Shown in pieces: positions 13,149 to 16,707 of a stretch of 64,000 nt of DNA (position 1 is its first letter; each line of letters opens with the position of its first letter). The translations under genes were made by a program, and so were the position numbers. This stretch comes from Croceivirga sp. (GTDB lineage: Bacteria > Bacteroidota > Bacteroidia > Flavobacteriales > Flavobacteriaceae): assembly GCA_028281025.1 (NCBI GenBank), contig JANQKR010000044.1:62001-126000 (forward strand), read 5' to 3'. The notes beneath the pieces are model-generated. The model did no database searches, was not told the DNA's origin, and saw only the letters and a program-made list of their open reading frames with translations.

Positions 13149-13162
13149 TTTACTTAAGTAAA
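13149..13162. promoter_or_regulatory. 14-bp perfect palindrome upstream of the VKOR-fusion gene
   Basis: TTTACTTAAGTAAA reads the same on both strands and ends 12 bp before the ATG at 13175. It lies within a wider inverted repeat, TAATCCATTA at 13121-13130 and TAATGGATTA at 13166-13175. Palindromes in this position usually bind a dimeric regulator, but no regulator gene is adjacent and the AT-rich setting makes chance symmetry possible. Confidence 0.4.
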
Positions 13163-13174
13163 GTCTAATGGATT

Positions 13175-14740
13175 ATGGATGAAGTACTTTTTAAAGCCCT
13201 CATAAGTTATTTCAATGCCGAAAAAATAGAAATATCCCAGGATGAACTAAGACTCCAACTGTTCAGTCATCCACATACCCCTTCCCTCTACGCGGTGGCA
13301 GAGACCCTTACATTTCTAAAAATAGAAAATGTTGCCGCACAGGTGGAGCATGGGCAATTGGAAGTTTTGCCTAGTAATTTTATTGCCTTTTTACGGGATG
13401 AAAATGACAATGGATATTTTGCCCATGTGCACCAATCCGGAAACAGGGTTCTCTTAGCAGATAACAAGGGCAGTATTTCAAAAGAGGATTTTTGCAAGCG
13501 GTGGGATGGGATACTGCTCATTGCGGAGCAAGAAGATAGCGCCAAAGTCCAAAGGACATTTTGGCAAAAAGGGTTGGTGGTGCTCTTGGTCATGGTATGT
13601 ACCCTATTGGTTTGGCCAGGGATCCAAGCCCTACTTTTTTGCTTGATCGGGATATTGGGACTTATGCTTTCCGAAGAAATATTTAAGACAAGCAATAATA
13701 TGGGCTCTACCCTGGGGGCCAAAGTCTGCGGGAATGAAAAGCAAAACGGTTGTAATGAAATATTAGGTTCTGTCAAGTACAATATATCCCTATTTTCCCT
13801 TAATGATATCCTCTTCTCCTTTTTTGCAACGACCCTTATTTTTACCTTGTTTTACCCTTTGTTCAACTTTATGCACCTTGTGGTATATACTATGGCCATT
13901 GCAGCCGTCATGACTACGGTGTTCATTCAAAAGTTTATCGCTAAAAGTTGGTGCAGGTTATGCTTGTTGTCCAGTTTGTTGGTTGTACTGCAAGCGCTGA
14001 TTGTCTTGAAGGTCACATCTTCCCAGGAAACAGCACTTGTCTTGGAACCCCTATGGGAGAGCCTCAGGAAAGTATCTGTTTTCGGCTTCCTCTATTTGAT
14101 ATCGTTGTTCATCATATATCACTCCAGAAAGCTTAGAAAAATGAATCATGGGCTTGCCTTGGATCAAATAGACCTATTGAGATTTAAGCGTTCCCCCAAA
14201 ATCATTTCCCTTCTACTGTCCAATAGTGATCGCATTACATCCTTGGAAGGAAACAATCCATTGGAATCCGATAACAGGGATGCCGAGCATATTGTTCGGG
14301 TGGTATTGTCCACTTCCTGCAAGTATTGCAAAGACGCCTTTGCCCTGTTTTACGCGTATTATCGGGAAAATAAGGCCAAGTATGGGTTTCAAATCATTTT
14401 TAACCACTACGAAGTAAACAATTCAAAACGCAATGCAGTGGCTGCCAATTTAATTCAGATCTACAGAGCGGAGGGGTTCGAAAAGCTGCTCCAGAAAACG
14501 GATGATTGGTTCTCCCGTCCCAAGGATAGTGCGTACTTGGAAAAATACCATGGGCACATTCAGGATGAAAACTATACCGTGTTATGGGAGCAAAGGGATT
14601 GGTGCAAAGACAATGCCTTGTTCCATACACCCATATGGCTTATAGACGATTATGTCATCCCGGAATTCTACGATGCTTCCTTCATAAACGATTTCATGAA
14701 AACTGTGGAAGAAAATGATATTGATGCAGTTAGCGTATAA
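13175..14740 (+). CDS. C39-like / vitamin K epoxide reductase / thioredoxin-like fusion protein
   Basis: 521 aa in three parts. Residues 1-120 resemble a peptidase C39 fold without its catalytic Cys, but with a His (H84 in YFAHVH) and Asp (D96 in VLLADNKG) in the usual positions and the FCKRWDGILLIAE ending. Residues 130-315 are a VKOR-type membrane domain with Cys185/Cys193 in the loop and the redox CxxC Cys260-Cys263 (SWCRLC). From about 370 a soluble thioredoxin-like domain has the CxxC Cys382-Cys385 (TSCKYC). The enzyme would make or shuffle disulfides. The four-Cys GG-leader peptide begins 165 bp downstream on the same strand, so that peptide is the obvious candidate substrate, with the inert C39-like domain as a possible leader receptor. 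That link is inference. Confidence 0.8.
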   Translation: MDEVLFKALISYFNAEKIEISQDELRLQLFSHPHTPSLYAVAETLTFLKIENVAAQVEHGQLEVLPSNFIAFLRDENDNGYFAHVHQSGNRVLLADNKGSISKEDFCKRWDGILLIAEQEDSAKVQRTFWQKGLVVLLVMVCTLLVWPGIQALLFCLIGILGLMLSEEIFKTSNNMGSTLGAKVCGNEKQNGCNEILGSVKYNISLFSLNDILFSFFATTLIFTLFYPLFNFMHLVVYTMAIAAVMTTVFIQKFIAKSWCRLCLLSSLLVVLQALIVLKVTSSQETALVLEPLWESLRKVSVFGFLYLISLFIIYHSRKLRKMNHGLALDQIDLLRFKRSPKIISLLLSNSDRITSLEGNNPLESDNRDAEHIVRVVLSTSCKYCKDAFALFYAYYRENKAKYGFQIIFNHYEVNNSKRNAVAANLIQIYRAEGFEKLLQKTDDWFSRPKDSAYLEKYHGHIQDENYTVLWEQRDWCKDNALFHTPIWLIDDYVIPEFYDASFINDFMKTVEENDIDAVSV

Positions 14741-14904
14741 GGTAAACGTATCGTTAACAAAGTGAAGGTAATTGTTAATTGTGATTTTCCAGTATTCAAA
14801 AAAGTAGGAAAAAACTTACATATTCAGTATTTTTAGCATATAATTTCAGGCAAATCTCCGAAGCCCCATATTGAAAAAGAGGAGAATTATTAAAATTATA
14901 TGCA

Positions 14905-15048
14905 ATGGAAAAATTGAGTTTAAAAAACCTCAAGAATCAAAAATTGAATGATTCAAAATTGAAGGACATTTCTGGAGGGTTCCCAGGCTACCGGTGTCCA
15001 CCTTACTACTGCATGTACGTGAACCCTGGGGCAGATTGCTGCTCGTAG
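14905..15048 (+). CDS. GG-leader, cysteine-rich natural-product (bacteriocin-like) precursor peptide
   Basis: A 47-aa ORF that automated callers easily miss. The leader MEKLSLKNLKNQKLN...LKDISGG is short, amphipathic and ends in a double Gly after ISGG, the classic C39-peptidase site of Bacteroidota GG-precursor peptides. The 22-residue core that follows has Cys at core positions 6, 11, 20 and 21, two Pro-Pro/Pro-Gly turns and several aromatics. It has a terminator right after it and follows the VKOR/thioredoxin fusion gene. Two disulfides, or modified Cys such as thioethers or S-glycosides, are possible. No homologue was searched for. Confidence 0.75.
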   Translation: MEKLSLKNLKNQKLNDSKLKDISGGFPGYRCPPYYCMYVNPGADCCS

Positions 15049-15076
15049 AGAGCAGGTGCCCAAAGGGAATTCAAAG

Positions 15077-15117
15077 AAGTTCAAAGTTTGCACATCCTGT
15101 AGACTTTGAACTTTTTT
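15077..15117 (+). terminator. Rho-independent terminator of the precursor peptide gene
   Basis: A perfect 11-bp stem (AAGTTCAAAGT at 15077-15087, ACTTTGAACTT at 15103-15113) with a 15-nt loop is followed by a T6 run. It lies 29 bp after the peptide stop codon, which supports the ORF being a real, abundantly transcribed gene. Confidence 0.88.
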
Positions 15118-15187
15118 GTTTTGGACCAGCGATGGAAAAGGGATTGCTTATCTTCCGTACCCAGAACCAACTCTTGTTCATTTCCCG

Positions 15188-15814
15188 TTAGTCCAAAGCC
15201 AATATGGTCCCGAAATAGAGGATTTGTTTTTCCATGAATTCAAGTAGGGCGCTATCCAGTTGCTCATGGGGTATATCCAAAGTTTCTTTTACAAGCCCAA
15301 AAAACTCTTGGTACGTAAACTCATTTTCATAGCTGATGATATCCAGCAAAAGGGCTTGCAAGCCCGTTAGGCAAATTTCTTTGGGGGCAATTGGGAGAAA
15401 ACTTGGTACAAATAAATAATGTGTGGTTTTTGGCTCAATATTGGCGATGTCGTCAACATCCCAAAAAAAGGTGCTTTCTGCCAAATAATTGGAGATGGAA
15501 AGATTCATCCTAAAACGACTTTTGCGCTTTTCATCACCGGACTTGGCACAAAAAGCAATGGCGGAAGCCAAACGATCGACGGCCAACCGCCCATCCAGGG
15601 TATGGGATTCAAAAATGTGGTATCGCTGTTGCTCCAGATGGTAATAATCCAGTAGCATTGCCCTGGAATTGCCATTTACATCCTGCAACTTTTCCAAGAC
15701 GTCAAAGACATACTTTTTTTCATGGATGTTCAAAAAGGTAGCACGACTGATTTCGGACGTTGGGGGGTCCTCCAAGGTAGCCATCCAGTTCAGAAAATTT
15801 CTACGTGTATTCAT
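15188..15814 (-). CDS. Uncharacterised protein of the peptide locus
   Basis: 208 aa, soluble, no signal peptide. I do not recognise the family. The central part is beta-like (RKSRFRMNLSISNYLAESTFFWDVDDI). The last 50 residues (LTGLQALLLDIISYENEFTYQEFFGLVK..) are helical with a winged-helix look that loosely recalls PqqD-type peptide-recognition modules; this is a weak resemblance. Its ATG overlaps the last four bases of the DUF6734 gene, so the two are translationally coupled. It runs toward the precursor gene and ends 140 bp from it. Confidence 0.6.
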   Translation of the reverse strand: MNTRRNFLNWMATLEDPPTSEISRATFLNIHEKKYVFDVLEKLQDVNGNSRAMLLDYYHLEQQRYHIFESHTLDGRLAVDRLASAIAFCAKSGDEKRKSRFRMNLSISNYLAESTFFWDVDDIANIEPKTTHYLFVPSFLPIAPKEICLTGLQALLLDIISYENEFTYQEFFGLVKETLDIPHEQLDSALLEFMEKQILYFGTILALD

Positions 15815-16707
15815 ACCAAGCTGTGTTCATTACTAAACTGCAATAGTCGATGATAGTATTCCGGAAATTCCAATTGCAATCTTGCCACCACCTGTTCCAA
15901 AAATGCCGTGGAAAGCTTTAAATGACTTAATAAATGCACATAGGCCGCATCATGGGGTATTTTATGGAATGCCGCAAAATCAATTTCACTGTCCGCTTCT
16001 TCATAAAGTGTGACCAGGTCCACATTATAGCGGTATACAATATTGCTCAATAAAAATTGCTCGTAGTACAGGTTGAAAATCCCCCCGTTAATGCCCCCTA
16101 TCTTATCCTGGTTGTTATCTACAAGTTCAAAAGCCCGGGACGTGTACCGTTGGAAAACCTCCAATTCATTTCCCCCAATGACCCCTGCATTGATCAGTTT
16201 TAACTGCCTTGGGCCCTTTAATTCCTCCAGTTGAAATTCATCTGGGACCTTTCTAAAGTTTTCATTGACGTAGGGATGTATTTCGGAATACACTTTCATG
16301 TCAAGATCAAAACTCTGGGCGAATACAGGAGCCTTAAGGATTTTGTCCAGGACGGGGCCAAAAAGGAATACGTCACCGTCTATATGGCAAAAAGGTTCTT
16401 TTTGGAGCTGATAGGTATACAACTTCCCCAAAGCCCATGCTCCCTTGTGATAGTCATTTAAGTCATTTAAGGCGTTGGAAAACTTTACATAGGGTAGGCG
16501 TAAAGCATCCCTAAAAATGGCCATGCCATAGTCATCCGTTACCAACTGTAGGTTTGGATAATACCTTTTAATGGACAAGCAACTGTAGACCCAAGCACTA
16601 TAAAATAAAAAAGCATTGGGGAACCCACCATCATGTCTAAAGTTCCAGCTATTTCGATGTTCAATATCAAAGATAGGTTTCGACCAGAAGGACTGAATAA
16701 AGTTCAT
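15811..16707 (-). CDS. DUF6734-type glycosyltransferase-like protein
   Basis: 298 aa. The pattern MNFIQSFWSKPI, GGFPNAFLFYSAWVYSCLSIKRYYPNLQLVTDDYG, WALGKLYTYQLQKEPFCHIDGDVFLFGP matches Bacteroidota proteins that I know as DUF6734. The DGDVF motif is a DxD-like sugar-nucleotide/metal site of GT-A glycosyltransferases. Related genes often accompany GG-leader peptides, which would fit glycosylation of a Cys, Ser or Tyr in the core, but this is unproven. It starts the two-gene - strand operon convergent to the precursor. The DUF number is from memory. Confidence 0.65.
   Translation of the reverse strand: MNFIQSFWSKPIFDIEHRNSWNFRHDGGFPNAFLFYSAWVYSCLSIKRYYPNLQLVTDDYGMAIFRDALRLPYVKFSNALNDLNDYHKGAWALGKLYTYQLQKEPFCHIDGDVFLFGPVLDKILKAPVFAQSFDLDMKVYSEIHPYVNENFRKVPDEFQLEELKGPRQLKLINAGVIGGNELEVFQRYTSRAFELVDNNQDKIGGINGGIFNLYYEQFLLSNIVYRYNVDLVTLYEEADSEIDFAAFHKIPHDAAYVHLLSHLKLSTAFLEQVVARLQLEFPEYYHRLLQFSNEHSLV

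What the first reader, a model, noticed from the sequence alone, without database searches (positions are those of the whole stretch)
13149..16707. Compact peptide-natural-product locus: VKOR-fusion, four-Cys GG peptide, DUF6734 and an orphan
Seen: a palindrome before the VKOR fusion gene, a Cys-rich GG-leader peptide with its own terminator, and two translationally coupled - strand genes facing it. Known: GG-leader peptides in Bacteroidota are secreted by C39-type transporters; VKOR/thioredoxin proteins form disulfides. Inference: the fusion oxidises the peptide, and the DUF6734 and orphan proteins modify it. No C39 ABC transporter lies in the window, so export would use a distant transporter.
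Basis: partly seen in the sequence, partly recalled or inferred. Interest (0 to 1): 0.85.

Follow-up and report, generated by a model that had tools for sequence, protein, structure and literature searches.

The report
Four-gene factory for a cysteine-rich peptide
A small set of genes shared by several marine bacteria appears to make a short, cysteine-rich secreted peptide, with one membrane protein that would form its disulfide bridges and a predicted sugar-attaching enzyme paired with a predicted leader-binding helper; the sugar step and the product itself remain untested.

Summary
In detail: fusion gene, 47-codon GG-leader peptide gene with terminator-like hairpin, and two coupled minus-strand genes lie where stated. 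The palindrome looks like chance. The four genes form a real set: among 199 family-level genomes the peptide (E<=2e-23), the orphan and fusions of >=43% identity occur in the same 4; with named genomes 9 loci are known, all with all four genes, peptide always tail-to-tail with the orphan. New readings: (1) the fusion is C39-like (no catalytic Cys) + VKOR + DsbA-like thioredoxin, six redox Cys invariant in 45 aligned fusions, common beside GG-peptide/C39-transporter genes; (2) DUF6734 is predicted to be a GT8/glycogenin-like glycosyltransferase; (3) the orphan's model has the βββ-ααα order of a RiPP recognition element (weaker evidence), and canonical DUF6734 proteins elsewhere carry a fused or adjacent partner; (4) core motif CxxYYCxxVNPxAxCC, with an extra Cys pair present or absent together. 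Best reading: a glycocin-like RiPP (disulfides plus leader-guided glycosylation) of Flavobacteriaceae, exported by a C39 transporter encoded elsewhere (found in all 9 genomes). Glycosylation is inferred from fold, not shown.

The parts
13149..13162 (.).
13175..14740 (+). membrane fusion: degenerate Peptidase_C39-like domain (match res. 17-121, no Cys before C107) + VKOR (C185, C193, C260, C263) + DsbA-like thioredoxin (C382xxC385, P486)
14828..14835 (+). TATTTTTA, like the Bacteroidota -7 box (TAnnTTTG, recalled); a TAnnTTTR match at this place in 8 of 10 peptides
14855..14885 (+). conserved 31-nt element with a 5-bp stem TCTCC/GGAGA around a conserved loop; only copy found in its genome
14905..15048 (+). 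precursor peptide, 47 aa: double-Gly leader (25) + core FPGYRCPPYYCMYVNPGADCCS (22)
15072..15118 (.). terminator-like hairpin between the convergent genes
15188..15814 (-). 'orphan' 208 aa: N-terminal helices + C-terminal RRE-like winged helix; proposed leader-binding partner of DUF6734
15811..16707 (-). DUF6734 protein, 298 aa; GT-A fold, GT8/glycogenin-like; D110xD112, H258(x5)K264 invariant in 12 aligned members

Best explanation
A RiPP locus of a glycocin-like kind. The 47-residue precursor is made from its own promoter. In the cytoplasm the RRE-like orphan binds the leader and presents the core to DUF6734, which transfers a sugar to it (acceptor unknown; the invariant Tyr-Tyr, Asn or a Cys are candidates). 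A C39 ABC transporter encoded elsewhere removes the leader after Gly-Gly (Gly-Ala in two relatives) and exports the core. The fusion, its C39-like domain in the cytoplasm (a non-cutting leader or transporter docking site) and its thioredoxin domain in the periplasm, forms two disulfides (three in six relatives), passing electrons to quinone. Shown by computation: conserved gene set, domain make-up, invariant redox Cys, paired presence of two Cys. Inferred from predicted fold: glycosyl transfer, leader binding. Inferred from homology or general knowledge only: topology, quinone use, export, disulfide formation. Biological role (antimicrobial, signal or other) not addressed.
Confidence: 0.57

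Rival explanations
1. Disulfide-only peptide: the fusion oxidises the peptide, while DUF6734 and the orphan act elsewhere (e.g. glycosylate an envelope glycan or protein, perhaps for self-protection).
For: DUF6734's near folds include the galactosyltransferase LgtC (an LPS enzyme, recalled); no acceptor is known; I saw no obvious immunity gene in the 9 loci but did not search for one.
Against: DUF6734-orphan adjacency and tail-to-tail placement of orphan and peptide in 9 of 9 loci; DUF6734 near LanB, C39 ABC, C39-VKOR or GG ORFs in 9 of 13 other canonical loci; RRE-like partner model.
Confidence: 0.22
2. DUF6734 is a GT-fold protein that does other chemistry or is a non-catalytic scaffold; the product bears a different modification.
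For: Fold does not show function; identity to the listed solved glycosyltransferases is 8-15%.
Against: DxD plus H-x5-K, the layout of GT8 metal and phosphate ligands (recalled from glycogenin), is invariant in 12 of 12 aligned members.
Confidence: 0.12
3. Same biosynthesis, but the peptide is a metal-binding or signalling peptide rather than an antimicrobial (compatible with the best explanation, which leaves the role open).
For: Invariant CC pair; no killing tested.
Against: Nothing here separates it from an antimicrobial role; the redox fusion argues for disulfides rather than free thiols.
Confidence: 0.3
4. Chance neighbours: an ordinary DsbB-like oxidase beside unrelated genes and a spurious small ORF.
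For: The fusion family is widespread (29 of 199 genomes); some loci share wider flanks.
Against: Nine complete loci, same 4 of 199 genomes, conserved core motif, rearranged order with the set kept.
Confidence: 0.02

Closest known systems
Glycocins (thermoglycocin, orniglycocin, glycocin F, sublancin; PMC12457901, passages read)
   Same: leader peptide removed by a C39 ABC transporter, a glycosyltransferase, disulfides, a pair of thioredoxin-like proteins
   Different: their transferase is SunS-like (family recalled); here a DUF6734/GT8-like protein with an RRE-like partner, one C39-VKOR-thioredoxin fusion, no linked transporter, Gram-negative host
RREs fused to glycosyltransferases of PF00535 in RiPP clusters (PMC12710340, passages read)
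   Same: leader-recognition domain joined to a glycosyltransferase: a precedent for the idea
   Different: another transferase family; DUF6734 is not named in the papers searched
TglHI (PMC10880893, passages read)
   Same: partner with a helical N-terminus and an RRE C-terminus next to the modifying enzyme
   Different: enzyme is a predicted glycosyltransferase, not an iron enzyme of the DUF692 family
GlyS-type areas in Bacteroidales (PMC10352776, passages read)
   Same: predicted peptide S-glycosyltransferase genes in RiPP areas of Bacteroidota (some B. fragilis and P. distasonis)
   Different: combined there with radical SAM and LanC; the terms thioredoxin, disulfide and epoxide reductase do not occur in its main text
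VKOR-thioredoxin fusions (3kp9/4nv6)
   Same: VKOR membrane domain followed by a thioredoxin domain
   Different: extra N-terminal degenerate C39 domain and tie to GG-leader peptides
TIGR04149 / Bacteroid_pep GG-leader peptides
   Same: leader type
   Different: window peptide scores below both cut-offs; core is another Cys motif

Membership tests
Glycocin | SunS-like GT2 (PF00535) peptide glycosyltransferase (definition recalled) | tested here: not met
   DUF6734 protein matches PF20508 only at E<=1; fold nearest GT8. So glycocin-like, not filed as a glycocin
Glycocin | glycosylated core peptide | not testable with these tools
   needs mass spectrometry
Glycocin | disulfide-bonded core with linked thiol-oxidising enzyme | tested here: inconclusive
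   enzyme present with all redox Cys; disulfides themselves unseen
RiPP recognition element | βββ-ααα winged helix order (definition from PMC12710340) | tested here: met
   model strands 111-116, 129-136, 145-149 then helices 152-159, 168-176, 183-201; one confident model of five
RiPP recognition element | match to an RRE/PqqD sequence family | tested here: inconclusive
   no such Pfam family at E<=10 in 9 members scanned; 4 unrelated families with one member each
RiPP recognition element | binds the leader | not testable with these tools
   needs binding assay
GT8-like glycosyltransferase | GT-A fold nearest glycogenin/LgtC | tested here: met
GT8-like glycosyltransferase | DxD and H-x5-K metal/phosphate motif (recalled) | tested here: met
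   D110, D112, H258, K264 invariant in 12 of 12
Peptidase C39 | score over the Pfam cut-off | tested here: met
   27.6 vs 22 bits
Peptidase C39 | catalytic Cys | tested here: not met
   first Cys of the window fusion is C107; match starts at profile 26. Not a protease
VKOR | score over the Pfam cut-off | tested here: not met
   window protein 15.8 vs 27.5; 44 of 45 fusions match at E<=0.1
VKOR | four redox Cys (loop pair and CxxC) | tested here: met
   C185, C193, C260, C263 in 45 of 45
TIGR04149 precursor | score over the NCBIfam cut-off | tested here: not met
   22.1 vs 25 bits, window peptide only

The most novel reading that the evidence does not exclude
A previously undescribed class of glycosylated RiPP in Bacteroidota: DUF6734 is a GT8-type peptide glycosyltransferase steered by an RRE partner (a neighbour gene here, fused to it in many other Bacteroidota), and a dead C39 domain has been turned into a leader or transporter docking module for a membrane disulfide-forming enzyme, coupling export to oxidative folding.
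Probability: 0.4. Interest if true: 0.78.

Novelty: new variant of a known kind. Interest (0 to 1): 0.63.

Why it matters
It gives a testable function to two uncharacterised families (DUF6734 and the 208-aa orphan), points to a common Bacteroidota enzyme (C39-like + VKOR + thioredoxin) as the likely disulfide catalyst of GG-leader peptides, and offers a compact gene set for heterologous expression. Peptides of this kind can be antimicrobials or signals.

Tried and rejected
Palindrome as operator: rejected. The 5' region as a large conserved RNA: the long outer stem of the window (14836-14846/14893-14903) is not kept in relatives; folding z-scores run from -2.45 (window and GF1, same sequence) to +1.84 over 10 sequences; only the 5-bp inner stem shows covariation (2 pairs, 3 cells; 17 of 500 shuffles as good), and the upstream GGC/loop GCC pairing fails in 4 of 9. 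No Rfam family (one sub-threshold miRNA match, E 0.37). Orphan vs the 233-aa partner and vs the L060 C-terminus by hhalign: no match. DUF6734 and orphan profiles vs PDB sequences: nothing significant. Window fusion alone vs PDB: nothing. Invertible-switch idea: no inverted repeat of 11 nt or more was seen at both ends of the turned block. Order-level orphan search: 1 of 395 genomes, the own one. 'Module sits in six unrelated places', which I first concluded from 6-kb flanks, was withdrawn after the 10-kb check. Left out of A5: L085 (492 aa, shorter), L086 and L087 (same genome as L071), so 45 of the 48 fusion genes fetched by then; fusions met later (L146, L151, L152) were not added. Left out of partner counts: broken DUF6734 copies in G164 and G645; the partial fusion hit in G162 was not fetched. 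G059's three near-alike loci (L071, L086, L087) count as three of the 38; the C39 ABC of L085 is in pieces.

Papers: search listings; passages of four papers (PMC12710340, PMC10352776, PMC10880893, PMC12457901); no paper read whole. In that open library no paper holds the word DUF6734; the listings for C39 + vitamin K epoxide reductase (5 papers) and RiPP + vitamin K epoxide reductase (12) show titles that look unrelated (not read). Most subscription papers are not in it.
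Full report
OBSERVATION. The fusion (13175-14740) has three parts: a Peptidase_C39-like N-terminus that passes Pfam's cut-off (27.6 vs 22 bits), then VKOR and thioredoxin regions that score below theirs. The 47-codon ORF (14905-15048) has a double-Gly leader with hydrophobic residues at -4, -7 and -12 and a 22-residue core with four Cys. DUF6734 scores 310 bits; the 208-aa orphan matches no Pfam or NCBIfam family at E<=1. The palindrome is one of 8 of its length in the window, 4.4 being expected, and has no exact copy in the GF1 locus; I drop it.

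THE GENES BELONG TOGETHER. In 199 genomes of the same family: fusion matches in 29, DUF6734 in 7 (one broken), orphan in 4, and a strong peptide match (best E per genome 1e-30 to 2e-23) in 4. Peptide, orphan and fusions of >=43% identity (all others <=29%) are in the same four genomes, and DUF6734 is in all four. Three more genomes have weak peptide hits (E 1e-3 to 7e-3: G177, G138, G012); in G138 and G012 these lie beside a C39-VKOR fusion, so they look like other GG-leader peptides. A pattern-based scan of the genome collection with the orphan gave 8 loci, 3 of them the same genomes again; an order-wide search of 395 genomes gave only the own copy. In total 9 distinct loci: the window; Flavobacteriaceae bacterium GF1; Flagellimonas aequoris; Ulvibacterium marinum; Ulvibacterium sp.; four uncultured Flavobacteriaceae. 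All 9 hold all four genes. Window versus GF1 dN/dS is about 0.14, 0.07 and 0.08 for fusion, DUF6734 and orphan; the peptide gene has 0 of 144 differing bases while its neighbours differ by 5-8%.

A CAUTION ON LINKAGE. Near neighbours are widely shared only within window/GF1 (10 genes) and within the three Ulvibacterium-like loci (8-10 genes). But over 10 kb some loci share single genes: an about 80%-identical transporter gene between window/GF1 and the Ulvibacterium-like loci, sensor-kinase genes (61-65%) between G120 and G018, and one or two genes between G018 and the Ulvibacterium-like loci, among other weaker pairs. So shared descent at a related place, not repeated transfer, may explain part of the linkage. 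The set nevertheless stays complete at 35-44% fusion identity and through a change of gene order. I leave the odds nearly as they were (0.57 instead of 0.58).

ARRANGEMENT. In six loci the order is fusion > DUF6734 > orphan > < peptide. In the window, GF1 and F. aequoris the DUF6734-orphan-peptide block is turned round relative to the fusion. Orphan and peptide are tail-to-tail in 9 of 9. In the tree of the three proteins F. aequoris groups with G102 (support 0.92), apart from window/GF1, which suggests more than one turn; a tree of the fusion alone with outgroups is weakly supported.

THE PEPTIDE. Ten precursors align; the core motif is C-x2-YY-C-x2-VNP-x-A-x-CC, its four Cys kept in all. Six precursors have one more Cys before the motif and one more inside it (ACCC), always both. 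Window and GF1 have neither. G102's two precursors lack the in-motif Cys and have odd totals: 5, and 9 in the one with two tandem cores, so a bridge between peptides is possible. On the tree the joint change happened at least twice, which is what a disulfide between those two positions predicts; this rests on the G102-F. aequoris grouping. A TAnnTTTR match (14828-14835 in the window; 8 of 10 peptides) and a 31-nt element (14855-14885) precede the gene. The covariance model of the element finds one copy in the own genome and, among 49 sources (913,642 bases), only the ten it was built from; the next match has E 1.2. Its 5-bp stem has two covarying pairs; whether it acts as RNA or DNA is open.

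THE FUSION. 45 of the 48 fusion genes fetched by then were aligned; C185, C193, C260, C263, C382, C385 and P486 are invariant. VKOR and Thioredoxin_4 match 44 of 45 and Peptidase_C39 38 of 45 at E<=0.1. The family profile matches an ABC bacteriocin transporter with C39 domain (4ry2 residues 79-192, E 2e-4; PCAT1, name recalled), a VKOR (6wv9, E 7e-7) and DsbA-like proteins. The window's C39-like domain cannot be a cysteine protease of this kind: there is no Cys before position 107 and the match starts behind the catalytic Cys, which is at about profile position 13 by comparison with the genome's own C39 ABC protein (motif recalled). It is therefore likely a binding domain. Of 38 loci with fusions outside the module, 27 hold a C39 ABC gene, 26 an HlyD gene and 13 a Cys-rich GG ORF; 32 hold an ABC gene or a GG ORF, 6 neither; the same ORF pattern appears in 1 of 38 reversed sequences. 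This general link is the strongest support for oxidation of the peptide by the fusion. Topology (C39-like part inside, thioredoxin part outside) is taken from solved VKOR-thioredoxin proteins, not tested.

DEPTH OF THE LINK. Among those 13 DUF6734 loci, 4 have a C39-VKOR fusion next to DUF6734: G026 of the same family (L060), G721 of another family of the class (L146), a Hymenobacter plasmid with a Cys-rich GG ORF between them (L151) and an Emticicia plasmid (L152). Within the stretch read, 9 of 13 have a lantibiotic dehydratase, C39 ABC gene, fusion or GG ORF; L139, L141, L142 and L143 have none seen. The own genome's second DUF6734 lies in a LanB-LanC-C39 ABC locus (L013).

EXPORT. None of the 9 module loci has an ABC or HlyD match in the stretch read. 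Each of the 9 genomes has a full-length C39 ABC gene elsewhere (own genome; G102 and G018; the other six: 717-736 aa, E<=5e-98 to the own-genome transporter, Walker A motif present; my ABC-signature pattern was seen in 3 of the 6). Export in trans is the reasonable reading.

PRECEDENTS. RREs fused to glycosyltransferases of PF00535 are already reported (PMC12710340), and glycosyltransferase genes in Bacteroidales RiPP areas too (PMC10352776). What differs here is the transferase family, the fusion and the gene set.

VERDICT. Observation confirmed and interpretation supported in outline, with a sharper mechanism: glycocin-like division of work (leader-guided glycosyl transfer, disulfides, C39 export) with other parts. 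It is not filed as a glycocin, since the transferase belongs to another family. Sugar, disulfides and leader binding all remain to be shown at the bench.

Noticed in passing
L012, L014, L015 (own genome, contigs C8 and C31): Three further C39-VKOR fusions in the same genome: one with C39 ABC + HlyD + two long GG ORFs, one in a LanB/LanC locus, one beside two GG ORFs with no transporter in the stretch read.
   Followed up: partly
L013:5718-11917 (own genome, contig C3): DUF6734 + 233-aa partner + LanC + LanB + Lant_dehydr_C, with HlyD and C39 ABC behind: a lanthipeptide-type locus with a DUF6734 gene; no precursor found with my pattern.
   Followed up: partly
L062 (same-genus genome G164): A DUF6734 match interrupted by several stops, about 10 kb from a C39-VKOR fusion with a Cys-rich GG ORF and C39 ABC.
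   Followed up: no
L149 and L061: Lower-scoring DUF6734 genes without RiPP genes seen around them; L149 looks phage-like to me (not tested). The fold may have other uses.
   Followed up: no
L150:7486-9185: Tandem divergent DUF6734 relatives in another gene context; paired copies also in G314 and G347.
   Followed up: no
window 14905-15048 vs L096:10823-10966: Peptide gene identical in all 144 bases although neighbouring genes differ by 5-8%; extra constraint or local exchange.
   Followed up: partly
L058:11944-12156: Precursor with two tandem cores (9 Cys) next to a 5-Cys precursor.
   Followed up: no
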